In this document: positions 911 to 31,795 of the stretch, piece after piece
How positions within the stretch are numbered: the first letter of the stretch is position 1
Layout: each line of letters opens with the position of its first letter
Notes under the pieces: model-generated
Database searches by the model: none
Seen by the model: only the letters and a program-made list of their open reading frames with translations
Told to the model about the DNA's origin: nothing
From: a virus
DNA length: 31,795 bases
Virus record (IMG/VR): IMGVR_UViG_3300015264_000045
Span: 1-31,795 of that record
Reading direction: 5' to 3' (one strand)
Made by a program: the position numbers and the translations under genes

Positions 911-1042
911 ATGGGTGTGAGGATCAAGCGTACTCCGTCCAAAGGCAGACGTAGAGGTTGCTGGCTCAGATCAGTTGTACTCCTAGTCATAACATCACAT
1001 GTGGTAGTGTGGTGCGTTGTGTCGCTTTCGAGCGTTGTCTAA
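911..1042 (+). CDS. Possible small membrane protein (43 aa)
   Basis: An ATG begins five bases after the previous stop and the frame stays open for 43 codons. The first 16 residues are strongly basic (Arg/Lys), and the remainder forms one hydrophobic Val/Leu-rich helix with a Cys and Trp. That is an ordered basic-head, membrane-helix architecture rather than a random reading. There is no clear Shine-Dalgarno sequence, so translation may depend on re-initiation after the upstream gene. Its TAA lies within the first GTCTAAC copy of the TAGAC-rich region. It could be fortuitous. Confidence 0.4.
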   Translation: MGVRIKRTPSKGRRRGCWLRSVVLLVITSHVVVWCVVSLSSVV

Positions 1043-1134
1043 CTTCAAGTCTAACTTGTGGTCCATAGCTACCTAAGGGCTTCTATAGGCTAGCTATGGT
1101 TCCTTAGTTAGACCTCAATAGACACAGGTCTATA
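1037..1134 (+). repeat. TAGAC-rich intergenic module 1
   Basis: This non-coding stretch contains GTCTAAC at 1037 and 1049 (12 bases apart), then GTTAGAC at 1107, ATAGAC at 1118 and GTCTAT at 1128. Read on the - strand, the first pair is AGTTAGACTTGAAGTTAGAC, very close to the spaced pair found in modules 2 and 3 near 20.06 and 31.31 kb. ATAGAC-acag-GTCTAT forms a perfect 6-bp hairpin. It lies upstream of a promoter, so an operator role is one option; an origin or structural RNA is another. Confidence 0.6.
1049..1113. repeat. Nested inverted repeat inside module 1
   Basis: Two perfect stems are stacked. The inner one pairs CCATAGCTA (1063-1071) with TAGCTATGG (1091-1099) around a 19-base loop. 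The outer one pairs GTCTAACT (1049-1056) with AGTTAGAC (1106-1113), separated from the inner stem by six bases on each side. The symmetric 6/6 internal loop makes the whole a 65-base palindromic structure. It has no trailing T run, so it is not a typical intrinsic terminator. Confidence 0.7.
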
Positions 1135-1174: not shown

Positions 1175-1205
1175 TTGTGGATACTAGCGAGGCCTCCTGT
1201 ATAAT
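1175..1205 (+). promoter_or_regulatory. Sigma70-like promoter for the 1226 operon
   Basis: A perfect TATAAT at 1200-1205 is preceded by TTGTGG at 1175-1180 with a 19-base spacer. The spacer is slightly long and the -35 is imperfect. Transcription should begin near 1212, just before AAGGAG at 1214-1219 and the ATG at 1226, leaving only about 14 bases of leader. It sits directly downstream of TAGAC module 1. Confidence 0.65.
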
Positions 1206-6711: not shown

Positions 6712-6741
6712 TTGAGATGTCCTAGTGAAGCCCTATATAAT
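6712..6741 (+). promoter_or_regulatory. Sigma70-like promoter for the replication cluster
   Basis: TTGAGA at 6712-6717 and TATAAT at 6736-6741 are separated by 18 bases, the same spacing as the 4.4 kb promoter. Transcription should start near 6748, giving a leader of about 24 bases before the ATG at 6772. That leader shows no clear Shine-Dalgarno sequence. Confidence 0.7.
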
Positions 6742-12611: not shown

Positions 12612-13296
12612 CAGTGTTGCCGTTGTGAGTGGTGGGATGGACTCAGTCACCCTCCTCTACTGGATGATGGAGTTCGATTACACTCCGCACGTCATCAGCT
12701 TCGACTACGGTCAGAAGCACGTGAAGGAACTGGAGATGGCTAACTACCACGCCACTCACCTGGGACTCTTGCACACCATTGTACCACTCACCGGCTTGAA
12801 CACACTGCTCAAGTCAGCCCTTACTTCCTCCGAAGAAGAGGTGCCTGAGGGTCATTACGCAGCAGACAATATGAAGGCTACAGTCGTTCCGAACAGGAAC
12901 ATGATCATGATGTCAATCGCTGCAGGTCTTCTGATCAGCGAGCATGGTGATACTCTCGCTGTAGGTGTGCATGCAGGAGACCACCAGATCTACCCAGACT
13001 GTCGCCCTGAGTTCATCGTACACATGGAAACGACCCTAAAGCTCGCGAACTCAGGCTTCCTCGACCCTCACTTCCAGATCGTAGCACCATTCGTGTACAT
13101 GGGGAAGCACGACATCGCAGCGATCGGCAAAGACTTCAACGTCGACTACAGCAAGACGTGGAGTTGCTACAAAGGTCAATCCTTGCATTGCGGTCGTTGC
13201 GGCACGTGTGTGGAGCGTAAGGAAGCCTTCGATCTCGCCAAGATGCAAGATCCTACAGCATACGAGACCGACTACGACACGGAGCCCGTAGCATGA
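12589..13296 (+). CDS. queC: 7-cyano-7-deazaguanine (preQ0) synthase QueC
   Basis: QueC converts 7-carboxy-7-deazaguanine to preQ0 using ATP and ammonia. The PP-loop SGGMDS is at residues 14-19. The zinc ligands C193-x7-C201-x2-C204-x2-C207 are intact near the C-terminus. At 235 residues it is a normal-length QueC with no glutamine amidotransferase fusion as seen in Gat-QueC proteins. The GTG start at 12589 overlaps the primase gene by 23 bases; the ATG at 12604 is an alternative. It opens the modification cluster. Confidence 0.95.
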   Translation: MNVKRMIDSVAVVSGGMDSVTLLYWMMEFDYTPHVISFDYGQKHVKELEMANYHATHLGLLHTIVPLTGLNTLLKSALTSSEEEVPEGHYAADNMKATVVPNRNMIMMSIAAGLLISEHGDTLAVGVHAGDHQIYPDCRPEFIVHMETTLKLANSGFLDPHFQIVAPFVYMGKHDIAAIGKDFNVDYSKTWSCYKGQSLHCGRCGTCVERKEAFDLAKMQDPTAYETDYDTEPVA

Positions 13297-13583
13297 GCAG
13301 CCTTGGAGTAGGACCACTAGGATCACCTCACATGCATGAGCCACTTCCTATCATGGAGCATGCAGACTCACTGATGGCACATATCAGCGAGTTGGAAGCT
13401 GAGCTGAAGAGTACATCTTACCTACTTGCAGCTCTGATCTACAAGCTCGGACCGCAGACGCTGACTGTGAAGGACTTGCGTGAAGCGCAAGGCATATCGA
13501 CGCTTCACGTTGAAGCACAACCTGCAACAGGGGCTATCCTGATCGAACTCACTACAGACACGAACAGGGAGCTCCCTGAATGA
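13293..13583 (+). CDS. Hypothetical protein within the preQ0 cluster (96 aa)
   Basis: This gene overlaps queC and queD by ATGA junctions, so it is made with them. A Met/His/Pro-rich N-terminus leads into a helix with coiled-coil features (LMAHISELEAELKSTSYLLA, residues 28-47), followed by a beta-rich tail. It resembles small phage proteins with a leucine-rich helix but not any known deazaguanine enzyme. Its role in modification, if any, is unknown. Confidence 0.6.
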   Translation: MSSLGVGPLGSPHMHEPLPIMEHADSLMAHISELEAELKSTSYLLAALIYKLGPQTLTVKDLREAQGISTLHVEAQPATGAILIELTTDTNRELPE

Positions 13584-14170
13584 CAAGCCCACATGGTCTC
13601 ACTGGTGTCTCCGTCGTAACGGTGAGTCACAACTTCGAGACGGCGCATCGCCTCCCGTTCCTAGGAGGCAAGTGTCAAAACCTTCACGGTCATTCGTGGG
13701 AGGTTGAAGTAGGTCTCGCCAACACAGCCTTCCTGTCAGGCATCAACGAGCACGGCATCTCCATCGAATACGGCCTCGCGAAGAAGGTTATTAGGAGCTG
13801 GATCGACGACAAGCTTGACCACGGCACGATGCTAGGTACAGATGATGCACTGGCAAGGTCCAGCGACACTCTCGACGAGATGGGCAAGGTATTCATCTTC
13901 GGCAGGCCTCTCGACGACTTCGATCAAACCTTGCAGCACGGTGTCTCTGACACCTACCTCGACTTGCCGTGGCCTACAGTCGAGGCTGTGGCGAGGATGC
14001 TGCACAGCAAGTTGCAGGCAGCTCTCACAGAGTCTTGCGGCGAATACATCATGGTCGACATGATTCGCGTCGAGGAGACTGAAGTCAATGCTTCACTCTA
14101 CATACCCGATACAACTCACCTTGAAGTCGGTCTCATGAGCAGGGAGTATTCATCACATGAGACTGAGTGA
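13580..14170 (+). CDS. queD: 6-carboxy-tetrahydropterin synthase QueD
   Basis: QueD makes 6-carboxy-5,6,7,8-tetrahydropterin from 7,8-dihydroneopterin triphosphate. The zinc histidines H23 (ETAHRLP) and H36/H38 (LHGHSW) and the catalytic Cys32 (GKCQNLHGH) are all present. RVEETEVNASLY near the C-terminus provides the pterin-binding Glu. At 196 residues it is longer than typical bacterial QueD because of an extra segment around residues 85-120 and a polar tail. It overlaps both neighbours. Confidence 0.93.
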   Translation: MTSPHGLTGVSVVTVSHNFETAHRLPFLGGKCQNLHGHSWEVEVGLANTAFLSGINEHGISIEYGLAKKVIRSWIDDKLDHGTMLGTDDALARSSDTLDEMGKVFIFGRPLDDFDQTLQHGVSDTYLDLPWPTVEAVARMLHSKLQAALTESCGEYIMVDMIRVEETEVNASLYIPDTTHLEVGLMSREYSSHETE

Positions 14171-14858
14171 GTTGTATACTTCAATCCAAGGCGAAGGGCC
14201 TAGCGTTGGAAGGCCTACTCAATTCGTGAGGTTTGCTGGTTGTAATCTCAAGTGCCCTGGCTGGCCTTGCGATACGCAACATGCCATCGATCCTAAGCTG
14301 TACAGGAACGAATGGCAAACGATTACTCCACAGGAACTACTTGTACGTGTGGAGCGTTGGCCGCGTGCCGTTACGCTCACCGGAGGGGAGCCTCTTCTAC
14401 AGCCTACGGACGATATGAAGTACTTTACGCAGACGCTCTTGGATCGTTACTACACCCTCGAGCTCTTCACGAATGGTACGTTCGAGCTACCTGCGTGGGC
14501 GCGTGACTTTCACACACGCATCATCATGGACTGGAAACTTCCAGGAAGTGGTGAAGACCCGTACAACCAGCAGCGCATTCAAAACGTACGGCATCACCTT
14601 GGTCGATACGACGCAGTCAAGTTCGTATGTGCTAATAGGTCAGACTTCGACCTTGCACTCGATCTGAAGGCTGCCTACGTTGACAATGACCCTGAGCGAG
14701 CTCCTTGGAATACGCCTCATGTATATGTAGGTGTAGCTTGGGGACTGCTCGAAGAGGCGGAACTGGTTGAATGGATACTCAAGGCTAAGATCGACAACCT
14801 TGAGCTGAATGTGCAAGTACACAACTACATCTGGCCAAGAGACGAGCGCCTACGTTAG
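14157..14858 (+). CDS. queE: 7-carboxy-7-deazaguanine synthase QueE (radical SAM)
   Basis: QueE is the radical S-adenosylmethionine enzyme that contracts carboxy-tetrahydropterin to 7-carboxy-7-deazaguanine. The N-terminus YTSIQGEGPSVGRPTQFVRF is typical. The cluster ligands are C29, C33 and C38 (GCNLKCPGWPCDT), spaced C-x3-C-x4-C rather than the standard C-x3-C-x2-C, so there are two extra residues. TLTGGEPLLQ (SAM-binding GGEP) follows. The length, 233 residues, is usual. The ATG overlaps the end of queD by 14 bases. Confidence 0.93.
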   Translation: MRLSELYTSIQGEGPSVGRPTQFVRFAGCNLKCPGWPCDTQHAIDPKLYRNEWQTITPQELLVRVERWPRAVTLTGGEPLLQPTDDMKYFTQTLLDRYYTLELFTNGTFELPAWARDFHTRIIMDWKLPGSGEDPYNQQRIQNVRHHLGRYDAVKFVCANRSDFDLALDLKAAYVDNDPERAPWNTPHVYVGVAWGLLEEAELVEWILKAKIDNLELNVQVHNYIWPRDERLR

Positions 14859-14870
14859 CTATGAGGTAAG

Positions 14871-15545
14871 ATGGTACAGTGGCATTCACCACTAGTCTAT
14901 CTCGTTCGTATTCCGAAAGAAGGTAATGTGTACCAGCGACCTGATCACGCACTTGTACAGGTGGTACAACAGTCAACTCGTCTCGAAGAGGTTGCACCTA
15001 CGTTGCTAGCCGATGCACTCTTGAAGCAACTCAGTGCAGACTACGACTCACTCGATCCACACTTCGCAAACACCGCGAAGCGGTGGGTTGCTTCGTTGAA
15101 GGAGCTTCTGACTCCTGAGCCCTTCAACTTCACCACCTTACCAGCTACCTCTGATGAGATGGTTGTACTCTCACCCATTCCCTTCTACACCATGTGTGCA
15201 CATCACGTCATTCCGTTCTATGGTCGAGCACATGTAGGCTACGTGCCACGAGAGAGCATTGCGGGACTATCGAAGTTCGGACGTCTTGTGAAGAACATGG
15301 CTAAGGGCTTGTGGGTGCAGGAGGATCTCACAGCTCATGTAGCAGACAAGATCGAGGCATACCTTGACCCACGAGGTGTAGCGGTTATCCTCGAAGGCGA
15401 ACACATGTGCATGTCGATGCGCGGCGTGCAGATGCCAGGAGTCGTTACCACCACGTCTGCAATGCGTGGTGTATTCGGAGATCATACCAGGACTGCTAAG
15501 GCAGAGTTCCTGCAAGTGATCGCACCTAGGAGAAACAATGGCTGA
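14871..15545 (+). CDS. folE: GTP cyclohydrolase I FolE
   Basis: FolE opens GTP to give 7,8-dihydroneopterin triphosphate, the first step toward preQ0. The zinc site is clear: C109 and H112 in YTMCAHHVIPF and C180 in GEHMCMSMRG. GRAHVGYVP and IAGLSKFGRLV are family signatures. The length (224 aa) is normal, with a variable N-terminus. GAGG is close to the ATG at 14871. The gene follows queE and precedes a MazG-like gene, so the phage does not depend on the host for this precursor. Confidence 0.95.
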   Translation: MVQWHSPLVYLVRIPKEGNVYQRPDHALVQVVQQSTRLEEVAPTLLADALLKQLSADYDSLDPHFANTAKRWVASLKELLTPEPFNFTTLPATSDEMVVLSPIPFYTMCAHHVIPFYGRAHVGYVPRESIAGLSKFGRLVKNMAKGLWVQEDLTAHVADKIEAYLDPRGVAVILEGEHMCMSMRGVQMPGVVTTTSAMRGVFGDHTRTAKAEFLQVIAPRRNNG

Positions 15546-16176: not shown

Positions 16177-16941
16177 ATGAAGTTAGCATTAATTCCGTCA
16201 CGTGAATGCTTGTATGATCAAGCAGTACGTACAGGCTATCACCTACTACTGCCACAGCATACGGATGATCCGCTATATGGGGGATTCTACATGCGACGTC
16301 GTGCAGAGGGTGACTTCCTCATGCTCGACAATGGTGCATGTGAAGGTCATCTGGTCAGTAACGAGGAGCTGATGCAGACGGCAAACACGTACATGGTGAA
16401 TGAGATCGTCGTACCTGATGTTCTATGTGACATGGAAGCCACACTCAACCTCGTCAAAGGCTTCCAAGATGTTGCCTTGAATAGTCCAGAGTTCAACTAC
16501 ATGGGTGTGCTTCAAGGCCTAACGATGGCTGAGCTACTAGAGTGCCTACGCATGTATGCTCAGATGAGTTACATCAGTACGATAGCCATTCCACGTCATG
16601 TCGAGACAACCGTAGGTTACGGCACTCGCTGGAGGATAGTTCGACATATCAGGGAACACTACTCCTTTCCTCAAGGTCCTCACTACCAGATCCACCTGCT
16701 GGGCACCAATCCTGCCTACATAAATGAACTTATAGTACATAACCGTGACTACGAAGACGCAGGCGTGCGCGGAGTAGATACAGCGTCACCGTACTACTAC
16801 GCTATGAATGGCAAACTCATCAAGGACCTTGAAGGTTGTAAACGTCCTGATGATTACTACAACCACAAGTTCACCAAGTCCGAGCATCAGTTAGCGAAAG
16901 CTAACACATCCGAGGTGTCACTCTGGACCAGGGGGTCGTAG
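16177..16941 (+). CDS. dpdA: DpdA-like DNA guanine transglycosylase
   Basis: This 254-residue protein looks like a compact phage DpdA, a relative of tRNA-guanine transglycosylase that swaps guanine in DNA for a 7-deazaguanine. MLDNGACEG (D51) corresponds to the first catalytic Asp region, VVPDVLCD and MGVLQG to the base-binding strands, IAIPRH and HLLGTNP to later barrel strands, and RGVDTASP (D201) to the nucleophile. It lacks the cysteine zinc subdomain of tRNA enzymes. It is placed after folE, queE, queD and queC, which would supply preQ0. Start ATG 16177; it ends overlapping the polymerase region. Confidence 0.8.
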   Translation: MKLALIPSRECLYDQAVRTGYHLLLPQHTDDPLYGGFYMRRRAEGDFLMLDNGACEGHLVSNEELMQTANTYMVNEIVVPDVLCDMEATLNLVKGFQDVALNSPEFNYMGVLQGLTMAELLECLRMYAQMSYISTIAIPRHVETTVGYGTRWRIVRHIREHYSFPQGPHYQIHLLGTNPAYINELIVHNRDYEDAGVRGVDTASPYYYAMNGKLIKDLEGCKRPDDYYNHKFTKSEHQLAKANTSEVSLWTRGS

Positions 16942-19353: not shown

Positions 19354-19662
19354 ATGTCCGGAGTTAATTGGGTTTGGCTAACCATCACTATCGTACTCGA
19401 AGTGATCGGTACCACGCTCTGTATTGTAGACAAGAAGTGTAAAGGAGACATCCTATGTCTTATGACGCGGAAGGGCAAGCGGAATACAGAAGGAAAAACC
19501 CAGACTACGTTCGACGATCAACCTTACAAAAGCAGGCGCGTGTTAAGGCTTTGGGTATCCTCCAGCGTAGGCATAAGGCAGAGTTCGACAACCTCTACGA
19601 CAGATGTTGCAAGGAGCTCGAAATCGATCCACCAAGGAGGTGGGCATCACAGTGAGAGGTAA
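19354..19662 (+). CDS. Possible small membrane protein, C-terminus doubtful
   Basis: An ATG two bases after the polymerase stop begins a frame whose first 30 residues form a plausible membrane helix (VNWVWLTITIVLEVIGTTL) followed by CIVDKKCKG. From about 19455 on, it overlaps the next gene in another frame and becomes Ser/Thr/Arg-rich, as expected of an out-of-frame reading. The real protein may be short with its stop lost, or this may not be a gene. No strong ribosome-binding site is present. Confidence 0.35.
   Translation: MSGVNWVWLTITIVLEVIGTTLCIVDKKCKGDILCLMTRKGKRNTEGKTQTTFDDQPYKSRRVLRLWVSSSVGIRQSSTTSTTDVARSSKSIHQGGGHHSER
19455..19655 (+). CDS. Small basic hypothetical protein (66 aa)
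   Basis: AAAGGAGA precedes the ATG at 19455 by a good distance, so the start is well supported. The protein is very basic, with Arg/Lys-rich helices (EYRRKNPDYVRRST, RVKALGILQRRHKAEF) and two adjacent cysteines. That suits a small nucleic-acid-binding protein, but there is no clear family signature. Its TGA overlaps the GTG of the HNH-like gene. Confidence 0.65.
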   Translation: MSYDAEGQAEYRRKNPDYVRRSTLQKQARVKALGILQRRHKAEFDNLYDRCCKELEIDPPRRWASQ

Positions 19663-19978
19663 GCCAGCCCGAGAGGGTGATCGGTACGTCTCGCAGAATG
19701 GTTACAGCTACACCAAGGTCGATGGTAAGTGGAAGATGACTCATCACATCGTTGCCGAAGAGATGATCGGTCGACCTATCGCTGAAGACGAGCAGGTAAG
19801 GTTCAAGAGCAACAACAGGTTAGATCTTCGTCCAGGTAATATCGAAGTCGTCAAGCGTGGTAAGACTTCCCTACGTCGTCGCAAGGCTCAGCTCGAGGCG
19901 CGTATCGAAGAACTGCAAGCGCAGCTTGATCTCGTCAACAAGGAGCTAGAAGCTCAGAGCGTCGTTGCTAACGCTTAG
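19652..19978 (+). CDS. HNH-like protein with degenerate active site and coiled-coil tail
   Basis: The GTG at 19652 overlaps the upstream stop and has AAGGAGG eleven bases before it; upstream in-frame codons lie in the previous gene. Residues about 18-67 resemble the HNH_3 homing-endonuclease fold: KMTHHIVAEEMIGRPI, then QVRFKSNNRLDLRPGNIEVV. The usual VHH catalytic histidines before the Asn-rich loop are replaced by VRF, so cleavage may be lost. The last 35 residues form a heptad coiled coil (RRRKAQLEARIEELQAQLDL). It may now bind DNA as a dimer. Its TAG stop is part of the first TAGAC of module 2. Confidence 0.75.
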   Translation: MRGKPAREGDRYVSQNGYSYTKVDGKWKMTHHIVAEEMIGRPIAEDEQVRFKSNNRLDLRPGNIEVVKRGKTSLRRRKAQLEARIEELQAQLDLVNKELEAQSVVANA

Positions 19979-20101
19979 ACTCGATATAGACCTATCTAGA
20001 CTCGAGTTAGACAGACAAACTCGCTGATCTAAGGTAGATCTATAGCCGCAAGATCCTTTTAGTTAGATCGCAAGTTAGACGACGGTCTGAGGCCTAGACA
20101 G
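19975..20101 (+). repeat. TAGAC-rich intergenic module 2
   Basis: TAGAC occurs at 19976, 19987, 19997, 20008, 20076 and 20095, with TAGAT at 20064. The first four are 10-11 bases apart, about one helical turn. A GATCTA-agg-TAGATC hairpin lies at 20026-20040. The part from 20005 to 20093 aligns with 31251-31341: AGTTAGAC-nn-ACAAAC, then the AGTTAGA/TAGAC pair 12 bases apart, then CGGTCTGAGGC. No gene lies here. Confidence 0.75.
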
Positions 20102-20127
20102 TGAAACCACACGCATAGGTGTAAACT

Positions 20128-20286
20128 TTGGATGGTGATATAGACTTGAGGAACTTACAGATTTACTTTGACTTCCGAGACTGGTGGATCGGCTACTACC
20201 GAAGTTACGATCACCATTACGTATGCCTCCTACCTACGGTAGTCATTCGATGGTGTCGACCTACATGTGGAGGCCTTGCTCGATGA
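20128..20286 (+). CDS. Small conserved-looking protein with TTG start (52 aa)
   Basis: The frame is open from TTG 20128 (TTG 20146 is an alternative) to a TGA at 20284-20286 that overlaps the RuvC ATG. AGGTG lies six bases before the first TTG. The sequence is rich in Tyr, Trp and Arg (IYFDFRDWWIGYYRSYDHHY, then VCLLPTVVIRW), an ordered composition that looks like a real small protein rather than chance. No ATG or GTG start is available, so the exact beginning is uncertain. The coupling suggests co-expression with the resolvase. Confidence 0.6.
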   Translation: MDGDIDLRNLQIYFDFRDWWIGYYRSYDHHYVCLLPTVVIRWCRPTCGGLAR

Positions 20287-20810
20287 AGCCTGGGAAGCTT
20301 AACATCTTGTGGCTTGATCCGGGAGGTACTACAGGATGGGCTCTCTACACTTGTGACCTGATGTCTATGGGCGAGGGCACGCCTTGGGAACATCACAACG
20401 TGAAGTGGAATTCAGGTCACCTAGGACCTGAGCAACATCACTGTCAGTTGTGGTCTCTCATCGGCGCTTGCCATACAGACAACTACATCCTGGGCTACGA
20501 ATCGTTCGAGTTCAGGCAAGGTAAGCAGCGTGCCAAGATTGTACTCGATTCGAAGGAGTACATCGGCCTCTGCAAGCTCTACGCATGTCTTACCAATCCT
20601 ACAGTACCTGTGGAACTCATCTCACAGACAGCTGCGACTGGTAAAGGGTTCTGGTCTGACGAGAAGCTAAAGCAGGTTGGTCTCTTCACACCCGCTATGC
20701 GACATGCGATGGATGCTACAAGGCACCTGTTGCACTATCTGACTTTTGGACCGTTCCAACGTCGCGAGTGGTTCCAACTACTGAAAGAAGATGGTGAGAC
20801 GCGGTCGTGA
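20283..20810 (+). CDS. RuvC-like Holliday junction resolvase
   Basis: The ATG at 20283 is nine bases after GGAGG and overlaps the previous stop; longer in-frame starts lie in upstream sequence without such a site. In 175 residues the RNase H-fold metal ligands appear in order: D12 in ILWLDPGGTTGWAL, E73 in LGYESFEFRQG, and D144 in the helix HAMDATRHLLHYL, the DAxRH pattern of phage RuvC-like resolvases. It should cut branched DNA during recombination or before packaging. It is the last enzyme of the + strand arm. Confidence 0.85.
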   Translation: MKPGKLNILWLDPGGTTGWALYTCDLMSMGEGTPWEHHNVKWNSGHLGPEQHHCQLWSLIGACHTDNYILGYESFEFRQGKQRAKIVLDSKEYIGLCKLYACLTNPTVPVELISQTAATGKGFWSDEKLKQVGLFTPAMRHAMDATRHLLHYLTFGPFQRREWFQLLKEDGETRS

Positions 20811-21200: not shown

Positions 21201-21410
21201 CTAGTACGGACGCCAAGCTGCTGTGCCTACTCCAGTGTGCTTGACTGTAGATGCACCACCGTTGAGCGAGACGCCTTGACTGGTCCTAAGCGTAACGTGC
21301 GTCGCATCAATGATCGTTACGACTCTTGCAGACATCCACTTAGGTACACCTGCGACGACGGCCATGTAGCTAACTGGCCTACCGACCTTGAGACGAACCT
21401 TGTTGCTCAC
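21201..21410 (-). CDS. Small hypothetical protein at the end of the lysis/tail arm (69 aa)
   Basis: The frame is open much further upstream (to 21734), but that part lies antiphase inside another gene and reads Arg/His/Cys-rich. The GTG at 21408-21410 overlaps the stop of the upstream gene (GTGA) and is the sensible start. The product is basic and beta-rich (SYMAVVAGVPKWMSARVVTI, then ATHVTLRTSQGVSLNGG), suggesting a small beta barrel or KOW/SH3-like fold. No family is named. It is the last gene of the - strand arm. Confidence 0.6.
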   Translation of the reverse strand: MSNKVRLKVGRPVSYMAVVAGVPKWMSARVVTIIDATHVTLRTSQGVSLNGGASTVKHTGVGTAAWRPY

Positions 21411-21754
21411 GCAGGTACCACAATACCGACTGGAGTGGTCTTCGGCTGGTTGGGGATTGCATACACGCCTGCGGTTGTAGCAACGCAGACAGCGACCTGA
21501 ATCCACTCTTGTGCACTGACACCATTGGAGAGGAAGCCGATCAAGAGCGTGAGACCTGTGGCGAGCGCGTTCACCCAGGTCTTCGAGGTCGCCAGGAGAG
21601 TGGTGTTTGGCATGAGCCAGGTGTACACAGCACCCAGTCCCATGACGGTGAGCTGGAGGTCTTCGGACAAGTCCAAGTGACCGTCGCCAAGGAAGGCGAT
21701 CAATCCTGTTGCGACTGCACCGAAGATAGCCCATACGAGCTTGTTGAGATTCAT
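21407..21754 (-). CDS. Membrane protein, holin candidate (115 aa)
   Basis: Hydrophobic segments lie at about residues 7-22 (VWAIFGAVATGLIAFLG), 34-48, 63-77 (ALATGLTLLIGFL) and 84-100, so three to four membrane helices with short loops. Size and topology fit a phage holin or lysis accessory protein, and it belongs to the same transcript as the endolysin. There is no distinctive family motif; small size plus position is the only basis. ATG 21754 overlaps the upstream stop. Confidence 0.6.
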   Translation of the reverse strand: MNLNKLVWAIFGAVATGLIAFLGDGHLDLSEDLQLTVMGLGAVYTWLMPNTTLLATSKTWVNALATGLTLLIGFLSNGVSAQEWIQVAVCVATTAGVYAIPNQPKTTPVGIVVPA

Positions 21755-22110
21755 TCCATGTCCTGTTCTCGTATTCGTGACGTTGGAGTAAAGTCTCCTT
21801 TCGGTCTACGACTCTTCACAAGGATCTTGGAGAAGATGATTGCTCTCCACCAGATCACAACCACAGTGATGTGGAAGATGATGAAGTTGATGATGGCTCT
21901 TCCAGGAAAGTCACCAAGTGTGACGAAGATCGCTGCAGGTGTCAGGTTGAGCCACACTACCACACCGTAAGCGAAGAAGTGCATTCCTAGTTCGGATTCC
22001 CAGAAGCGCATAGTGATGGCGTACACAACAGGGAAGATCAGCGAACCCAACCATCCAGAGAGGATGAGGACGACGTAGTAGTGATACCAGAAGGTAGGGA
22101 GTGCATTCAT
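21751..22110 (-). CDS. Multi-pass membrane protein (119 aa)
   Basis: Three or four hydrophobic helices are visible: roughly 8-32 (YHYYVVLILSGWLGSLIFPVV), 43-62 (MHFFAYGVVVWLNLTPAAIF) and 70-92 (AIINFIIFHITVVVIWW). A basic C-terminal tail (KSRRPKGDFTPTSRIR) is expected in the cytoplasm. It may take part in lysis with its neighbours, which is an inference from position. The stop overlaps the ATG of the next gene. Confidence 0.6.
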   Translation of the reverse strand: MNALPTFWYHYYVVLILSGWLGSLIFPVVYAITMRFWESELGMHFFAYGVVVWLNLTPAAIFVTLGDFPGRAIINFIIFHITVVVIWWRAIIFSKILVKSRRPKGDFTPTSRIREQDME

Positions 22111-22114
22111 ACTC

Positions 22115-22336
22115 TCATGCCCTCCTGCCTTTCTCTAGCGCCATCAGAAACGTCTCCACGAAACGATTCACTTGTCGAAGCTGCTTACTCTCCTTACGGA
22201 TCTCAGCACCCTTGGCAGTGAGTTCGCGCACTTCTGCTAGACGCTCGTCACCTGTACGTGCAGCCTGGCGGGCTTCCTGAATGCTCTTCTGCGTCTCCTC
22301 TTCAATCTTCTTCCGCCAGTGCCTCAATATGTTCAC
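22115..22336 (-). CDS. Coiled-coil hypothetical protein (73 aa)
   Basis: GTG at 22334-22336 overlaps the upstream stop (GTGA). The product is almost fully charged and helical, with heptads of Glu, Lys, Arg, Ala and Leu (KKIEEETQKSIQEARQAART). It has no membrane segment. It lies between two membrane protein genes and may be a soluble partner of one of them. No family is recognised. Confidence 0.6.
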   Translation of the reverse strand: MNILRHWRKKIEEETQKSIQEARQAARTGDERLAEVRELTAKGAEIRKESKQLRQVNRFVETFLMALEKGRRA

Positions 22337-22638
22337 CGCCCCAAACCTTGGTCGGTTATGGCAAGCCGGGTAACTGCCTCGTTCAGGCTAGCTACGAGCT
22401 TGACTACCACTTCATGATCTTCATGGATTTGCTTTAGTACTGGAATAGTCTCCTGAAGAGCCTGCTCGCGCTGCATTGCTGCATGCTTCCAGAATTCGAT
22501 CGACTCGTCCTTACCTTTGATGATTGAGTCAACCGTACGTCTTGGGACAATGTAACCACGAATGACTGCTAGGATTACAAGTGCCAGTACGCTTGGCGCA
22601 CCGATCCCTCCAATGAGACTGAGATCACCAGCATTCAC
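22333..22638 (-). CDS. Membrane-anchored coiled-coil protein, possible holin-like
   Basis: The start is GTG with GGAGGG four bases upstream. Residues about 8-30 form one hydrophobic helix (GGIGAPSVLALVILAVIRGY). The remainder is a long helix with coiled-coil character (ESIEFWKHAAMQREQALQET). One N-terminal helix plus a long cytoplasmic coil is seen in some small phage holin-like or membrane-tethered proteins. The exact role is unknown. Confidence 0.6.
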   Translation of the reverse strand: MNAGDLSLIGGIGAPSVLALVILAVIRGYIVPRRTVDSIIKGKDESIEFWKHAAMQREQALQETIPVLKQIHEDHEVVVKLVASLNEAVTRLAITDQGLGR

Positions 22639-22668
22639 GATCCCTCCAGTACTGCTAACGCCGCACAG

Positions 22669-22830
22669 CTAATGGGTATTCAGTTGTGCTTCTAGACGCT
22701 CAATGCGCCTCTCGAGCTCACCGATCTTGTCGATGATGTCACCGTTGGTAGCGTTACGTAGAGCTAGAGGTGCGAACTGGTCATAGCTCTGCGGATTGCT
22801 ATCACTAGGTACTGAGAAGGGATTAGTCAC
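22669..22830 (-). CDS. Small hypothetical protein with C-terminal coiled coil (53 aa)
   Basis: GTG at 22828-22830 opens 53 codons; AGGTG lies about ten bases upstream. The first half is polar, and the second half is a short coiled coil (IIDKIGELERRIERLEAQL, about residues 32-50), as in small oligomerising tail or lysis-region proteins. It lies between the Gp37-like tail gene and the small membrane genes. It is a credible gene despite its length. Confidence 0.6.
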   Translation of the reverse strand: MTNPFSVPSDSNPQSYDQFAPLALRNATNGDIIDKIGELERRIERLEAQLNTH

Positions 22831-22841
22831 GGTGTTCGCAC

Positions 22842-23990
22842 CTACGCACCTTCTTGGATTATTTGCGCATTGTAGTTTACAGTGGTGATACCAACGCTCT
22901 CAGGTCCTTGCTGACTATCAGGTGGTGACAGGGCCCAGCCTGTGATCCTCGTACATCCTTTACGTACTGTTGGGAACCTGTAAGGGTCTGCAAGCACGTA
23001 GTCGACGAAGTCGCCCAATCCCCAGTTACCAAAAGCTGAGTCACCTGTGTTAGGATTGAGTACGCAAGCGAAGGTAGGGTTAAGAATAGGGGGCTCGAGT
23101 ACGTCTCGCATGGCTAGCAGCCTCTGCTGTAAGAGCGTTACGTTCTCAGTCTCACTGAATGTGAATCGTTGACGGAGACGTGGGTAGCCACTGGCGAGGT
23201 TGGCCGAGTTAGTAACCACTGCACGAGGTGTACTAGTAGTATTAGCTTTACCAATTCCCGACAGGACGTTAGCTGCATCAGTAGCAGACTCAGACCACCA
23301 GTACTTAGCGATGTCTCCAGGATACTGGAATAGTGAGCGTGCAACACCTGAGGTGTAGTGGATACCGATCATGTAAGCATCACCTAGGTCCCACCGACCT
23401 AGATCGAGTGCTGCTTGGCGTACTCCTGAAGTGTCCTTGAAGTACCTGATACGATACTCCACACCTGCACGTACATACTCATTGACAACATCTGCCCAGT
23501 ACGTATTGTCTACACCGACTAGTGTCTTGGTGACTGTAGAGCCCCCATCACTACCTACTGCTGCAGGCACTTGTAGTACACCCACAGCATTGGCACCGAC
23601 GTTGAATGCTCTGTCGAACATGGTTCGTACGATGTTGGTCTTGTAGTCAGTTAGTGTAAGGTCAACGTCGCAGTAGTCCTTACCTAAGTAGGCATCAAGC
23701 GTCCTAGCCTGAAACTGCATTGATCGACCATCGCTCTGGTATGTGCGTACCCATAAGATGCCACACCAGATAGGTACTTTATCGCGTTCTACCCATACAA
23801 GAGTTTTACCTGGCTGCGTCGCATCAAGGATGTCCTGTGGCTTCCGCATACGTGAGTCCATACGTATGGTGCCTGTCCAGTCACCCGGCGCCGACAGTGA
23901 TTGTGTCATATTGAGACCATACAGACCAGGCAGTTCGTCTAGTAGTTGTCGAGTCGCGAGATCTTCGAAGAAGTATTTGTATTCGGGCAT
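22842..23990 (-). CDS. Tail protein resembling ReqiPepy6 Gp37 family
   Basis: 382 residues; GAGG lies shortly before the ATG at 23990. Beta-rich segments with Trp and Gly (GDWTGTIRMDSRM, VWVERDKVPIWCGILW) and a central YWADVVNEYVRAGVEYRIRY look like the baseplate-hub or minor tail proteins grouped with Rhodococcus phage ReqiPepy6 Gp37 (PF14594). Such proteins follow Dit at the tail tip. Here it lies after the endolysin and an HNH gene, within the same - strand transcript. Confidence 0.7.
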   Translation of the reverse strand: MPEYKYFFEDLATRQLLDELPGLYGLNMTQSLSAPGDWTGTIRMDSRMRKPQDILDATQPGKTLVWVERDKVPIWCGILWVRTYQSDGRSMQFQARTLDAYLGKDYCDVDLTLTDYKTNIVRTMFDRAFNVGANAVGVLQVPAAVGSDGGSTVTKTLVGVDNTYWADVVNEYVRAGVEYRIRYFKDTSGVRQAALDLGRWDLGDAYMIGIHYTSGVARSLFQYPGDIAKYWWSESATDAANVLSGIGKANTTSTPRAVVTNSANLASGYPRLRQRFTFSETENVTLLQQRLLAMRDVLEPPILNPTFACVLNPNTGDSAFGNWGLGDFVDYVLADPYRFPTVRKGCTRITGWALSPPDSQQGPESVGITTVNYNAQIIQEGA

Positions 23991-24039
23991 TTACCTCACC
24001 ACCCTCTCTGCTAGACGAACTGCCGTCAGTCATTACCTG

Positions 24040-24462
24040 TTAGCTGATCAGATTACGTACGAACTGCTCACCTTCATAGTCAGCAGCTGCAGCTACGTGC
24101 TTACCTCCATGTCCACGATGATGCCACTCGCAGAGCCACTCCAGATTCTCTGCAGATTCAATCCACGAGCCTACCTGGTTAGGATTACTGATTCCAGGAT
24201 ACTGCTTCTCCAGCTCCTTGAAGTCTACACCGTTCTGGAACGAGAACTCGATGTGCGAGTGGTGCAGCTCCATAGCGCCTTTACACTCTGCACCGTTACC
24301 AGTCTTGACTGCGAATGCACATTGTGCTGTTGCATGAGTTCTGCGCCTGTAGGCTTCGAACTCGGGGTAGTGTGGATCACCTGGCCGAGGCGCATGTGCA
24401 GGATAGTGCACAGTGTACTTGTGACTATCCGTCTGATCATGTGCTGGAATAGGTGATGTCAC
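24040..24462 (-). CDS. HNH endonuclease
   Basis: GTG at 24460-24462 overlaps the endolysin stop. The metal finger uses C48, C60 and C111 with H114/H115. The catalytic core has ELHHSHIEF (H67/H68), N106 in SAENLEWLC and HHRGHGG. These residues are intact, so nuclease activity is expected. HNH genes inserted among tail genes are usually selfish homing elements; none of its neighbours is obviously interrupted. A role in packaging is less likely because no terminase is nearby. Confidence 0.85.
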   Translation of the reverse strand: MTSPIPAHDQTDSHKYTVHYPAHAPRPGDPHYPEFEAYRRRTHATAQCAFAVKTGNGAECKGAMELHHSHIEFSFQNGVDFKELEKQYPGISNPNQVGSWIESAENLEWLCEWHHRGHGGKHVAAAADYEGEQFVRNLIS

Positions 24463-25418
24463 GGTGCTGGCCGAGGAGTTAACGTGATAGATCCAGTGGT
24501 GTCGTAGGTACCTGCAATGACAGGCGCCACTCCACCTGTAGTACTACCTTCAGCCTTCTGTGCTGCGAGGATAGCGTCCAGCTTAGCCGGAACACTCCTC
24601 TGCGCTTCTGAGGATCGCAGCAGCTCATCGAACGTAGCCTGATTCACTACGTATACAGGGAAGTTGGCTAGCGGATTCACAGCGCCATCAGCTGCAGCCG
24701 CATCGACTCCAGTAATGAAGCCTCCATTCAGAATAGCGATTCCACCAGGGTACTTGATAAGCATTGTATCGTCCTCTCGAGGAGTTGGTTGTGTGGCGGG
24801 TGTTGGTGAGACCTGATAGCTTACTTGACCCCAATCAGGCTTGAGGATGTCGCTAGCGTCACACTGCACGCCGCCAACATTTACATACCCGGCATGCTGA
24901 TACAGATTCGCATCAGCAAAGCGAGCACCGCCTGACCATGCTACTGTCTGCCAGAAGCGTGAGGCAACTCCTGCGACCTTAAGAGCATCGAGGACCGTTT
25001 TCTTACCATACATGCCTGTACGCTGTACATTGAGTACATCGTTCCAGCCCCGAGCATACTCGATGATACCTGGAAAGTCACTTCCAGGCGCATCGTAGTC
25101 AACTGCACCGTAGATGCATCGCAGATCATACACAGGCACAATCTCAAGAGCTCGTGCTAATGCCCACTGACCATCATGCACGCCAGCGGCACGACCCTCA
25201 CGTGACCGGTTAGGCTTGATGTGTTCGTACACAAACGCCACACCGCAGCCGGCACTCGCGAGACTGTTGTACTCTGCAACGTTGATAGGTACTACCGTAC
25301 TCGTAGTACCCTGATAAGGTTCCTTACGAAGGTACCTCACAGCACCTGCATAACCAGCAGCTCTCACCGCTTGCCCATTCAGATGTGCTGAACAATCTAG
25401 CACTTGTCCTAAAGCCAT
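24459..25418 (-). CDS. DUF1906-type endolysin or tail-associated glycoside hydrolase
   Basis: 319 residues; GGAGGAGG precedes the ATG at 25418. Residues 1-205 match the DUF1906 (Rv2525c-like glycoside-hydrolase-like) domain: LDCSAHLNGQAVRAAGYAG at the start, AFVYEHIKPNRS, VPVYDLRCIYGAVDYD, and WGQVSYQ. After a Thr/Pro linker there is a second domain (TMLIKYPGGIAILNGG...) of unknown kind, perhaps cell-wall binding. No signal peptide is seen, as expected for a holin-released lysin. It probably degrades host cell wall, either as endolysin or tail lysin. Confidence 0.8.
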   Translation of the reverse strand: MALGQVLDCSAHLNGQAVRAAGYAGAVRYLRKEPYQGTTSTVVPINVAEYNSLASAGCGVAFVYEHIKPNRSREGRAAGVHDGQWALARALEIVPVYDLRCIYGAVDYDAPGSDFPGIIEYARGWNDVLNVQRTGMYGKKTVLDALKVAGVASRFWQTVAWSGGARFADANLYQHAGYVNVGGVQCDASDILKPDWGQVSYQVSPTPATQPTPREDDTMLIKYPGGIAILNGGFITGVDAAAADGAVNPLANFPVYVVNQATFDELLRSSEAQRSVPAKLDAILAAQKAEGSTTGGVAPVIAGTYDTTGSITLTPRPAP

Positions 25419-25439
25419 ACCTCCTCCACTCTGCCTCTA

Positions 25440-26525
25440 TTAGACGTTAACCATCAGACCATTGTTGGCTGCTGGTGCTTGAGGGACAATCTTGAAGTAG
25501 TACACGGCTTCACCATTGACTGCAGCGTTGATACCCGTTACCCGATTGAAGTTGACCACTACTGAGTGTGCGCCTGTCTGGACAGCACTTCGGAACCAGT
25601 ACGTGCTAGTCCTGTTCACATATGGAATGGCACAGATTCCATTAGCAAGGAAGGCACCACCAGAAGTATCCAGTGTGAGTACAATGTCCCAGCGTGTAGT
25701 AGTATTATCACTGTTACAGTTCGCACTGAACATGCCTTCAATGAAGTATGGGTAACCAGGATCAGGAATACTAATTGTGCCTACGACACTACTGGATGTG
25801 TAAAGTCCATATGTAATGCCGGAGGAGTTGTATACCTGATTGTCAACACCTACAGGACGCCATCCAGTAGTAGGGTCTGCATTCCAGCTTTCAATACGTC
25901 CGTTGTAGTATCGCAGGTCGCCGTAGTCGATACCTGCCGACGAGATGTTGAACGGTCGTGCGATTGCGACGCCGCCTTGACAGGTGTAGAAAGAACGTAG
26001 GTCAGTGATCTTCGCTTGCACGATTGAAGTCACACCTGGACTGACAAGAACCTGAGCCATCGCCGCAACGTTAGTAGGTAGCGCGCCAAAGTTAGGTACG
26101 GCACTACCTACAGCTGCGTTAGTACCTACAATCAGACCGAAGTCATCCTTGTTCAAGGCACCTGAGTACTGCGCATCGTTGGTGTAGATGTAGATCAGGT
26201 CGATGCGTTCCAACGTGATATGCGAAGCACCAATTGCGATGGGGTTGATCTCAGCATCGTTCGCAATGACGTAGTTGCCTTGGGTGTTCGCCTCTAGTCC
26301 CGGAATCGAACCTAGGCCACGCGTCATTCGTACAGACATGTTCGGAGTAGTCTGTGCAAGTACCTTGAACGAGTTTGCAGCGAAGCGTACACCTCCACCG
26401 CCAGCCAAGCTGGCTGCAGGTGTGAAGCTGTCTGGCTTGAGGAGCGATGTGTACGCTAGACGATGTGTGTTGGCGTGGTGATCTGTACGGCCCTGGAAGA
26501 AGCCGCCCGGTACCATGATGGCCAC
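25440..26525 (-). CDS. Minor tail / tail-tip protein (361 aa)
   Basis: GTG at 26525 is close to AGGAGG. The N-terminal 190 residues have features of phage tail-tip proteins (RTDHHANTHRLAYTSL, RFAANSFKVLAQ, HITLERIDLIYI). The C-terminal part is a beta-rich, Gly/Thr/Ser/Asn-rich domain that could bind carbohydrate. Its position after Dit and before the endolysin supports a baseplate or receptor-binding role. No catalytic motif is visible. Confidence 0.7.
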   Translation of the reverse strand: MAIMVPGGFFQGRTDHHANTHRLAYTSLLKPDSFTPAASLAGGGGVRFAANSFKVLAQTTPNMSVRMTRGLGSIPGLEANTQGNYVIANDAEINPIAIGASHITLERIDLIYIYTNDAQYSGALNKDDFGLIVGTNAAVGSAVPNFGALPTNVAAMAQVLVSPGVTSIVQAKITDLRSFYTCQGGVAIARPFNISSAGIDYGDLRYYNGRIESWNADPTTGWRPVGVDNQVYNSSGITYGLYTSSSVVGTISIPDPGYPYFIEGMFSANCNSDNTTTRWDIVLTLDTSGGAFLANGICAIPYVNRTSTYWFRSAVQTGAHSVVVNFNRVTGINAAVNGEAVYYFKIVPQAPAANNGLMVNV

Positions 26526-26533
26526 AATACCTC

Positions 26534-27424
26534 CTAGAAGTAGCCGTCGCGAAAGGTACCATCCAATGGTACCACAGTTGTGGACGTGGCTTGGTACCTT
26601 AGCATATTAGTACCAGGCTGAATTAGAAACCAGCCTTCATTTCCATCTACAGTCATTCGACGTGAGACGCCATTGAGCTTGACAGTTCGCTTGGCAAGGT
26701 CGATAGTGATGATGTCAGAACTCGTAGATGCTGCCAAGCTAGGAAACGACAGCGTCTTACTTACTGTATCGCTTATCAGTCGTGGTCCGGTAACAGGACC
26801 TCTCAAACTGATAAGTGCACCTACTGCCTTATTCCCGTCGTTCACGACGATGACGGAGTTACCTGCAGTAGTAATTCCTCCGAAGCTCAAGTCGTAAGCA
26901 TTATCGAAGCCATGACCGTTTATGACCTCAGAGCTTAGCGTACCTGAAATGCTTTTGACTGCAGATGAATATACTACAGGATCTTGTGCCTGTAGTACGA
27001 TCGTGAAGTTTGTGGAGTTGTACCTACGAGCTTGATCGACATCGTAGCGCACACCAAGACTCTTACAGTATAGTACTCTTTGCACAGTGCCAGGCGACTT
27101 CATGTACAGCGGCTTGTCAGCAGTTCCTGGTTGGTAGTTAGCCTTCAGAGCGTCTAGCTGAGCTTCAATCGACTCTGCGGAGTGACAGAAGAGGATACCT
27201 TCAATAGTCACTGTGCGAGAATCAAGAAACTCATTGTCAACTGTACCTCCATCCATACCTTCAGAGGTCTTCATGGAGGTACGAATGTTACCTAAATCTA
27301 GGCCTGACAACTTCATGATGTCGTAGATAGGCGCACCCAGTACAGGCGCATTACTGTTAGAGTTCAACAAGATACCAGTGTCGGAGAACTGGTAACAGTA
27401 GTCACCAAGTACAGGCACAGCCAT
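26534..27424 (-). CDS. Distal tail (Dit)-like protein
   Basis: 296 residues directly after the tape measure gene, overlapping its stop by one base, with AGGAGG upstream. The N-terminus describes an extended beta structure (SGLDLGNIRTSMKTSEGMDG), followed by DSRTVTIEGILFC and SIEAQLDALKANYQPG, a pattern typical of siphovirus Dit/tail-tube-cap proteins. The C-terminal half is a galectin-like beta sandwich. Dit forms the hexameric hub between tail tube and baseplate. Confidence 0.8.
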   Translation of the reverse strand: MAVPVLGDYCYQFSDTGILLNSNSNAPVLGAPIYDIMKLSGLDLGNIRTSMKTSEGMDGGTVDNEFLDSRTVTIEGILFCHSAESIEAQLDALKANYQPGTADKPLYMKSPGTVQRVLYCKSLGVRYDVDQARRYNSTNFTIVLQAQDPVVYSSAVKSISGTLSSEVINGHGFDNAYDLSFGGITTAGNSVIVVNDGNKAVGALISLRGPVTGPRLISDTVSKTLSFPSLAASTSSDIITIDLAKRTVKLNGVSRRMTVDGNEGWFLIQPGTNMLRYQATSTTVVPLDGTFRDGYF

Positions 27425-30282: not shown

Positions 30283-30295
30283 CTCAACCTCTTCT

Positions 30296-30481
30296 CTACC
30301 CCTGCTGCTTACGTTCCATCTCTTCCCTCTCAGCTTGCGCTGACAGGACGGCTGCCATCATGTACACGTCTCGAGAATCCTGATCATATAATCCACCAGC
30401 TCGAGGCAGTACATGAAATGCTCTACAAAGGTTCGCCGTCTCGATGGCTTGCTCTACAACCGTATCAGGCTGTCTCTTCAT
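30296..30481 (-). CDS. Downstream half of tail assembly chaperone (T part of GT)
   Basis: This frame begins with an ATG, but it is also open upstream to the frameshift site near 30511, so it is mainly made as the C-terminal part of a GT fusion. The 71 codons from the slip site onward are helical, with EQAIETANLCRAFHVLP and MMAAVLSAQAEREEMERKQQ. In siphoviruses the T part recruits the tail tube protein while G binds the tape measure. It directly precedes the tape measure gene, as in many phages. Confidence 0.8.
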   Translation of the reverse strand: MKRQPDTVVEQAIETANLCRAFHVLPRAGGLYDQDSRDVYMMAAVLSAQAEREEMERKQQG

Positions 30482-30517
30482 GACGACAGAAGCCCTGATA
30501 CGGTCTAAGAGTTTCCC
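30460..30517 (-). promoter_or_regulatory. -1 programmed frameshift signal for G/GT
   Basis: On the - strand GGGAAAC (30517-30511) is read in frame as G-GGA-AAC, a canonical X-XXY-YYZ slippery site. Seven bases later CCGTATCAGG (30503-30494) pairs perfectly with CCTGATACGG (30469-30460); inside, CTGTC and GACAG can form a second stem. After a -1 slip the next codon is CTC and the frame runs into the downstream ORF without a stop. Confidence 0.9.
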
Positions 30518-30885
30518 TCGGGGTTGTCCTCATCCTCGAAGTTGTTCAAGTTGTCAATCAGGACTTCGATCTCCTCGCCAATCTTCGGATCAAGACTGAG
30601 AACACCTTCAGGAGTATGCAAGTTGAGCTTGTTACCCAACTCGTCCTCGAGGTTGTGGTCTACGAGGCAGTGCATGAAGTCAAATAGAGTTGAGTTCTGC
30701 GCGAGCATCTTCAAGTCGATTGAGTTGTTGCGCTTACCCTTCGAGTTCATCGTCATTGATGATGACTGCTCACGTCGTGTGATCTTCTGTCCATACGAGA
30801 GTCGCCTGAGGATTACCCATCCCTCAGGACAAGTCTTGAGGTCGACCTTCTCGCCTGGCGTCTGGTCCACAGTTGCACGAGGCAT
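30505..30885 (-). CDS. Tail assembly chaperone G
   Basis: 126 residues with AGGAG before the ATG at 30885. It is a mixed alpha/beta protein ending in an acidic tail (NNFEDEDNPEGNS). The stop follows the slippery heptamer by two codons. It is placed between the tail tube region and the tape measure, which with the frameshift identifies it as the G chaperone. Ribosomes that do not slip make G; those that slip make G-T of 196 residues (125 + 71). Confidence 0.85.
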   Translation of the reverse strand: MPRATVDQTPGEKVDLKTCPEGWVILRRLSYGQKITRREQSSSMTMNSKGKRNNSIDLKMLAQNSTLFDFMHCLVDHNLEDELGNKLNLHTPEGVLSLDPKIGEEIEVLIDNLNNFEDEDNPEGNS

Positions 30886-30908
30886 TTCATCTCCTAGATT
30901 CTTATGTG

Positions 30909-31190: not shown

Positions 31191-31230
31191 CTAACTCCTA
31201 ACTCTAGTAGCTCGGGTGAGTCTGTACTTA

Positions 31231-31341
31231 GTCTAACCGCTCTAGACTTTAGTTAGACGAACAAACCCGGGCTAGCTTACTCACTACTATGGGCTTCGAT
31301 GGATCGCTAGTTAGACTCGAAGATAGACACCGGTCTGAGGC
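31231..31341 (+). repeat. TAGAC-rich intergenic module 3
   Basis: GTCTAAC at 31231, TAGAC at 31243, GTTAGAC at 31252 and 31310, and GATAGAC at 31322. The part 31251-31341 matches 20005-20093 on the same strand: AGTTAGAC-nn-ACAAAC, a spacer of about the same length, AGTTAGACTCGAAGATAGAC, then CGGTCTGAGGC (11-base exact match). It lies in the gap 31191-31371 between the tail-tube-like gene and the endonuclease VII-like gene, which run on the other strand. Confidence 0.75.
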
Positions 31342-31371
31342 TTGCACCGATACCACACTTCACCGTTGAGA

Positions 31372-31795
31372 TTATGTAATGTTCACCGTAGCTAGAATGG
31401 TGAGCTTATATGCAGGTGCTCCAGTTGGGTCGATGGTTGTCGCTTGATAGGTAATAGCTGCGCGAACCAAGTCGCCCTGGTTAGAGAGGTTCATGACGTA
31501 AGTATCACGGATCGCAGACGCGAGGTCGATCTGGATACTTTCGTTTGCAGACTTCGATGCCTTGAGCTTGATAGCCTGAGACGTGAGAGTCTTGAAGGCA
31601 TCATACTCAGAGCGCGTGAGGAAGTCACGAGTAGTAGTCATCGTGACTGCGCGCTCGCCGTACCTGTTGAACTGTGCTCCACGACCAGTATTCTTCAGGC
31701 GGAACTCCGGCGTACCGTTGTCAGCGACTGTGAACGTGAAGGTATCCATGTCGAATACCTGAGTCGCGGTCGGGATCTCAATCGTGTAGTCACCT
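31372..31795 (-). CDS. Partial tail protein, probably major tail (tube) protein
   Basis: The frame is open to the right edge; a Met codon at 31747-31749 is internal because coding-like codons (IPTATQVFDMD) continue upstream. The visible 140 C-terminal residues are beta-rich (DTFTFTVADNGTPEFRL, then AYKLTILATVNIT). Its place just before the tail chaperones fits the major tail protein, though a tail terminator is also possible. The N-terminal part lies outside the window. Confidence 0.6.
   Translation of the reverse strand, partial: GDYTIEIPTATQVFDMDTFTFTVADNGTPEFRLKNTGRGAQFNRYGERAVTMTTTRDFLTRSEYDAFKTLTSQAIKLKASKSANESIQIDLASAIRDTYVMNLSNQGDLVRAAITYQATTIDPTGAPAYKLTILATVNIT

What the first reader, a model, noticed from the sequence alone, without database searches (positions are those of the whole stretch)
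20005..20093. A ~90-base intergenic module shared with 31251-31341
Both sites, on the same strand, share in the same order: AGTTAGAC-nn-ACAAAC, a spacer of similar length (56 versus 58 bases between GTTAGAC copies), an AGTTAGA/TAGAC pair exactly 12 bases apart, and an identical CGGTCTGAGGC. Roughly 26 of 34 aligned bases agree in the 3' part. Neighbouring genes run in opposite directions at the two sites, so a simple shared gene-leader explanation fails. An iteron-like origin, operator cluster, packaging or segregation site, or ncRNA are all possible.
Basis: seen in the sequence. Interest (0 to 1): 0.72.

Follow-up and report, generated by a model that had tools for sequence, protein, structure and literature searches.

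The report
Phased TAGAC arrays at phage operon junctions
The repeated ~90-base intergenic module is real and is one of one to five copies per genome, in an uncultured phage group, of a rigidly spaced protein-binding array; the best candidate for its binding protein is a conserved, catalytically dead HNH protein encoded next to one copy, which resembles the animal Smad DNA-binding domain in fold and in the suspected target letters (AGAC).

Summary
The unit is GTTAGAC/GTCTAAC (core AGAC/GTCT). Over 21 contigs these sites sit 11, 21 or 32 bp apart within an arm and 57, 68, 78 or 89 bp apart between arms, in either orientation; TAGAC ranks first of 512 five-base words for such phasing. CCACA(C/G) lies 22-27 bp outside one arm in about 20 of 51 modules. 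Of 51 modules, 39 lie in four conserved gene junctions (5.5 expected). Cores agree better within a genome than at the same junction in other genomes (0/5000 permutations), so this is no gene leader. RNA, prophage integration, ParB and sigma-70 operator readings are not supported. My best explanation: binding arrays for one phage protein, probably the 108-aa HNH-like protein conserved beside the 19976 copy, which has Phe at the catalytic His in all 30 relatives aligned, an I-HmuI-like fold and a C-terminal coiled coil. Binding is inferred, not shown; the output (transcription control, replication start or genome folding) is open.

The parts
1007..1132 (-). Module A, oriented leftwards: right arm GTTAGAC/GTTAGAC at 1037-1055 (minus strand), core, left arm at 1107-1132, CCACAC element at 1007-1012 (minus strand)
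1178..1205 (+). Sigma-70-like promoter match (TGGATA-16-TATAAT) 45 bp beyond module A; nearby, but modules in general are not enriched for such promoters
19652..19978 (+). Gene for the degenerate HNH-like protein with C-terminal coiled coil (108 aa, GTG start); its TAG stop overlaps the first TAGAC of module B; inferred binder of the arrays
19976..20112 (+).
20184..20810 (+). RuvC-like gene downstream of module B (true start may be ATG 20284); flank of the conserved junction
31231..31358 (+).
31372..31749 (-). Major tail protein gene (75% identical to the G001 copy) ending next to module C

Best explanation
The module is a cis-acting nucleoprotein assembly site: two arms of asymmetric 7-bp sites (GTTAGAC or its reverse GTCTAAC) placed one or two helical turns apart, held about 57 bp apart across a core, with a CCACA(C/G) element at a fixed distance outside one arm. 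One phage-encoded protein binds the sites side by side on one face of the helix and builds the same complex at every copy in the genome. The most likely protein is the small degenerate HNH-like protein encoded directly beside module B: a nuclease fold that lost its catalytic histidine and carries a coiled coil, so that it can bind, dimerise and possibly bridge but probably not cut. The output I consider most likely is control or insulation of transcription at the junctions between gene blocks. Shown: the arrays, spacing, conserved positions, within-genome similarity of cores, loss of the catalytic residue, predicted fold. Inferred: that this protein is the binder, and the output.
For: Spacing peaks at 11, 21, 32, 57, 68, 78, 89 bp regardless of orientation over 21 records; TAGAC ranks first of 512 5-mers. 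39 of 51 modules lie in four conserved junctions versus 5.5 expected; the stretch after the HNH-like gene has at least 3 sites in 25 of 39 relatives, background 0.38 per 270 bp. Cores agree more within a genome than at the same junction elsewhere, 0 of 5000 permutations, which points to a common trans-acting factor. The HNH-like protein is single-copy in all 21 records; Phe51 is invariant in 30 relatives where four phage HNH homologues have His; model pLDDT 92.5 with a 34-residue C-terminal helix; best solved match I-HmuI, then I-PpoI, then Smad MH1 domains. Smad MH1 is described as a degraded homing endonuclease (Grishin 2001, cited in PMC4999995) and binds CAGAC/GTCTAGAC (PMC5727232). One subgroup whose HNH-like protein lacks the coiled coil has no array in a 62.7-kb contig that carries the marker genes from helicase to terminase.
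Against: No binding data exist. The Smad matches have low Z (about 3) and fold similarity shows no function. The loss of coil and arrays together is one evolutionary event. Distant relatives keep the protein with few TAGAC sites, although AGAC sites with another 5' base are there. Modules are not enriched for sigma-70-like promoters (3 found, 2.7 expected), which weakens transcription control as the output. Orientation at junctions A and C differs between relatives.
Confidence: 0.5

Rival explanations
1. The modules are iteron-type replication origins or origin enhancers, like ori1/crr of satellite phage P4, bound by the phage primase-helicase or by the HNH-like protein; the core melts and CCACA marks priming.
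For: Direct and inverted repeats at helical spacing around a core less G+C-rich than the genome (0.471 versus 0.549); right arm about half a turn out of phase with the left; orientation varies; the primase has DUF3987 and weak RepB-primase matches and its C-terminus reads like a winged helix (own reading).
Against: One to five copies per genome, one of them inside the late operon; G+C skew follows gene direction and shows no break at modules; the G023 relative keeps the primase at 46% identity but has no array; lower G+C is usual for intergenic DNA.
Confidence: 0.27
2. The modules are genome-organising or bridging sites (MatP/matS-like in action): coiled-coil protein dimers bring the distant copies together and divide early from late domains.
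For: Coiled coil in nearly all homologues; freedom of orientation; copies roughly 10-20 kb apart at block junctions; no promoter enrichment.
Against: No contact or binding data; copy number varies from 0 to 5 detected.
Confidence: 0.18
3. The sites are bound by another protein (host regulator, or the phage proteins wh104/p203 encoded near junctions D and A) and the neighbouring HNH-like gene is incidental.
For: wh104 and p203 homologues lie near D and A in many records and share a PPQxxYxYxK stretch; adjacency alone is weak evidence.
Against: Neither protein has a Pfam match; no p203/wh104 hit in G022, which has a module, though that record is partial; AGAC/GTCT matches what a related fold reads in Smads.
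Confidence: 0.3
4. The modules are mobile or recombinational boundary sequences copied between junctions.
For: Within-genome similarity of cores; orientation flips at A and C; a paper titled 'Nuclease genes occupy boundaries of genetic exchange between bacteriophages' exists (PMC10448857; title and abstract start only).
Against: No tyrosine or serine recombinase in 19 relatives; positions and spacing are conserved over deep divergence; target-site duplications were not tested.
Confidence: 0.1
5. The module is a structured RNA (leader or ncRNA).
For: Module A folds well (z -4.3 and -5.2 as RNA on the two strands), because its arms are inverted.
Against: Modules B and C fold no better than shuffles (z between -0.9 and 1.1); no Rfam match; arm orientation differs between homologous copies.
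Confidence: 0.02

Closest known systems
Smad MH1 domain and its GTCT/AGAC binding element
   Same: A nuclease-like (His-Me/HNH) fold without nuclease activity; recognition letters AGAC/GTCT
   Different: Phage protein with a coiled coil; structural match weak (Z about 3); binding not shown; a shared origin of the DNA-reading trait is not claimed
HNH homing endonucleases of the HNH_3 type (I-HmuI)
   Same: Pfam HNH_3 match above cut-off for several members; same predicted fold (Z 6.7 over 67 residues)
   Different: Catalytic His replaced by Phe in all 30 homologues aligned; conserved at one genome position; C-terminal coiled coil
P4 ori1/crr and iteron origins (from own knowledge)
   Same: Clusters of short direct and inverted sites in two or more places
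   Different: More copies, some within the late operon; initiator link not shown
Cluster A mycobacteriophage stoperators
   Same: Asymmetric sites repeated at many places in the phage genome, read by one phage protein
   Different: Arrays of 3-7 phased sites, not single 13-bp sites; no recombinase of the two main families in relatives; both orientations
MatP/matS (from own knowledge)
   Same: Coiled-coil DNA-binding protein with dispersed sites
   Different: Different fold and site; bridging not shown here

Membership tests
Active HNH_3 homing endonuclease | HNH_3 domain and His-Me fold | tested here: met
   Pfam PF13392 30.0 bits versus cut-off 24.8; I-HmuI best fold match
Active HNH_3 homing endonuclease | Catalytic histidine | tested here: not met
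   Phe51 invariant in 30 homologues; His in four phage HNH homologues
Smad MH1-like DNA-binding domain (works like) | Fold similarity to MH1 | tested here: inconclusive
   Smad MH1 Z 2.3-3.0, below I-HmuI 6.7
Smad MH1-like DNA-binding domain (works like) | Specific binding to AGAC/GTCT | not testable with these tools
   Site core is AGAC/GTCT and the Smad element is GTCTAGAC/CAGAC, but binding needs experiment
Iteron replication origin | Phased repeat sites next to or near the initiator gene | tested here: inconclusive
   Phased repeats present; initiator not identified
Iteron replication origin | AT-rich unwinding element | tested here: inconclusive
   Core G+C 0.471 versus genome 0.549; not compared with other intergenic DNA
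Iteron replication origin | Initiation of replication at the site | not testable with these tools
   Needs marker frequency or plasmid assay; skew shows no break
Cluster A stoperators | Isolated 13-bp asymmetric sites | tested here: not met
   Arrays with 11/21/57 bp spacing
attP or res recombination site | Cognate tyrosine or serine recombinase in the genome | tested here: not met
   PF00589 and PF00239: 0 of 19 relatives, controls ring; records may be incomplete and the window itself was not in that set
parS centromere | ParB protein | tested here: not met
   PF02195: 0 of 19 relatives
Structured RNA | Rfam match or stable conserved fold | tested here: not met
   No Rfam match; B and C no better than shuffles
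Operator of a sigma-70 promoter | Promoter at or next to the module | tested here: not met
   3 promoter-like matches near 51 modules, 2.7 expected; other promoter types not covered

The most novel reading that the evidence does not exclude
A phage clade has turned an HNH homing endonuclease into a non-cutting, coiled-coil DNA-binding protein that reads AGAC/GTCT in helically phased arrays at its main gene-block junctions, a bacterial-virus parallel to the Smad MH1 domain and its binding element.
Probability: 0.4. Interest if true: 0.85.

Novelty: new variant of a known kind. Interest (0 to 1): 0.62.

Why it matters
It defines, for an uncultured phage group found in many metagenomes, a conserved set of control sites and a named candidate protein, so that one binding experiment can test it. 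If the dead HNH-like protein reads AGAC, it is a second case of a cutting enzyme turned into a sequence reader with the same letters as Smads, and it warns that small phage genes annotated 'HNH endonuclease' may be regulators.

Tried and rejected
Near-identity search in isolated phages: no match. Tape-measure search in viral contigs: no relative. Rfam and RNA/DNA folding: rejected RNA for B and C. Recombinase and ParB searches: nothing. Promoter enrichment near modules: none. G+C skew: follows gene direction only. Phased arrays in the isolates Amigo, Yappy and CN1A: TAGAC not phased there; only these three were tried and part of each record. Exact right-arm pattern in IMG/VR: 8 stretches, at least five of them from three contigs of this group already in hand; one other hit contig (G027, 43.3 kb) matched none of my marker genes. 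Host search through GTDB genomes: one distant scaffold from an uncultured bacterium (UASB270), so the host stays unknown. PDB search with the HNH-like profile: nothing significant. Idea that a HNH gene of this kind accompanies each module: rejected, it is single-copy and beside B only.

Full report
What the window is. The record is a 31.8-kb virus contig from IMG/VR. Genes from about 375 to 20810 run rightwards (helicase, exonuclease, Sak4-like protein, primase, DNA polymerase, RuvC-like protein) and those from 21201 to 31749 run leftwards (lysis, tail, tape measure, tail tube). No isolated phage is close: the best-placed primase matches in isolates, from Curtobacterium, Streptomyces and Arthrobacter phages, are about 29% identical or less (polymerase). 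Eighty viral contigs carry a primase 43-76% identical; many are about 50 kb.

The observation. The two sites align far better than shuffles or other window segments (Smith-Waterman 74 against maxima of 42 and 33). A third site at 1037-1132, in the reverse orientation, was missed; it also exceeds the controls. The 20005 site extends left to 19976.

Architecture. I fetched twenty related contigs through handles and counted distances between TAGAC sites. In the first 13 records, same-strand distances pile up at 11-12, 21, 32, 57-58, 68-69, 78 and 89-90 bp. With all 21 records, orientation ignored and site centres used, the peaks are 11 (44 pairs), 21 (43), 32 (18), 57 (23), 68 (20), 78 (21) and 89-90 (34), against about 1.7 per distance expected for random placing. 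Among 512 five-base words, TAGAC shows the largest excess of phased over unphased pairs (120 to 13). So a module has a left arm of two to four sites, a core, and a right arm of one or two sites, with about 57 bp between the inner sites. That is about 5.4 turns of 10.5 bp, so the right arm would lie nearly on the opposite face of the helix; this is my arithmetic. CCACA followed by C or G lies 22-27 bp outside one arm in about 20 of 51 modules. At junction B it points to the RuvC-like gene wherever it was found; at A and C its side differs between relatives.

Place in the genome. With marker genes mapped, 39 of 51 modules fall in four junctions, against 5.5 expected from their lengths: A between a 203-aa protein gene and the helicase, B between the HNH-like gene and RuvC, C between the major tail gene and the tape measure, D between the terminase and a 104-aa protein gene. 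Not every junction holds a detected module: A 13 of 17 records, B 15 of 20, C 8 of 21, D 3 of 10, with a strict TAGAC criterion. The stretch after the HNH-like gene holds at least three TAGAC sites in 25 of 39 loci, against a background of 0.38 per 270 bp. In some loci that lack TAGAC clusters, AGAC sites with another first base stand at similar spacing (CAGAC in G010, GAGAC in G009), so the constant letters are probably AGAC/GTCT.

Same factor for all copies. Cores from one genome agree better with each other (0.490) than with cores at the same junction in other genomes (0.414), with 0 of 5000 label permutations reaching the observed value (orientation and site labels were assigned by me). 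This fits one factor acting on all copies, or copying between junctions, and speaks against gene-specific leaders.

What it is not. No Rfam family matches; modules B and C fold no better than shuffles as RNA. No tyrosine recombinase, serine recombinase or ParB is found in 19 relatives, although the controls ring, so attP, res and parS readings lack their enzyme there. Sigma-70-like promoters are not enriched near modules (3 against 2.7).

The candidate binder. The gene directly left of module B is named HNH endonuclease by family searches. Its start is probably the GTG at 19652 (AAGGAGG upstream; own reading), and its stop overlaps the first TAGAC. It is single-copy in all 21 records. In 30 aligned relatives the position of the catalytic histidine is always phenylalanine, whereas four HNH homologues from other phages have VHH there. 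AlphaFold2 gives a confident model (pLDDT 92.5) of an HNH core and a 34-residue C-terminal helix. The best solved match is I-HmuI (Foldseek E 0.093, probability 0.98; VIA-align Z 6.7), followed by I-PpoI and Smad MH1 domains at Z 2.3-3.0. The MH1 domain is described as a degraded homing endonuclease (Grishin 2001, cited in PMC4999995), and Smads bind CAGAC and GTCTAGAC (PMC5727232). The letters in the arrays are the same. This agreement is suggestive and could be chance; the Z values alone prove nothing.

A natural comparison. One subgroup (L068, L069, L071, L073, L075) has the HNH-like protein cut short before the coiled coil. Its 62.7-kb contig G023, with helicase, primase, polymerase, terminase, portal and tail genes, has no array. 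A neighbour with the full protein (L070/G022) has one; another (L076/G025) has only a degenerate trace. This counts as a single event. G021 (83.6 kb) holds both forms and is larger than expected, so it may be a mixed assembly and I give it no weight.

Judgement. Shown by computation: a conserved, phased, multi-copy array of sites and a conserved degenerate HNH-like protein beside one copy. Inferred: that the protein binds the array (about 0.5), and the output. Transcription control or insulation at junctions is my leading guess, ahead of replication start and genome folding, but the promoter test was negative and none of the three is excluded. The confidences of the rivals are not exclusive of each other: those on output and those on the binder answer different questions.

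Noticed in passing
window 12589-15545 and 16177-16941: Adjacent genes read by eye as queC-, queD-, queE- and folE-like plus a possible transglycosylase, suggesting a 7-deazaguanine DNA modification pathway; not tested with family searches except one weak PHROG match for the last.
   Followed up: no
window 30909-31190 (-): A recombination endonuclease VII-type gene (Pfam 85 bits) lies between module C and the tail genes; it was not analysed further.
   Followed up: no
L069 20415-20648 and the same place in L068, L071, L073, L075: The HNH-like protein is truncated before the coiled coil and the junction B array is replaced by other coding DNA, apparently including another HNH-type gene.
   Followed up: partly
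G021 (loci L161-L165): An 83.6-kb viral contig carries both a full and a truncated HNH-like gene, perhaps a mixed assembly of two relatives.
   Followed up: no
window 4414-4443 and 6712-6741 (+): Two near-consensus sigma-70-like promoters (11 of 12) in the early region, away from any module.
   Followed up: no
L083 2112-2723 and L085 9323-9637 (G001 2112-2723 and 49323-49637): Two proteins near junctions A and D share a PPQxxYxYxK stretch and have no Pfam match; candidate DNA-binding proteins and rivals for the array.
   Followed up: partly
21 records, 57-bp gap between inner sites: The two arms are about half a helical turn out of phase with each other, a fixed geometry I cannot explain.
   Followed up: no
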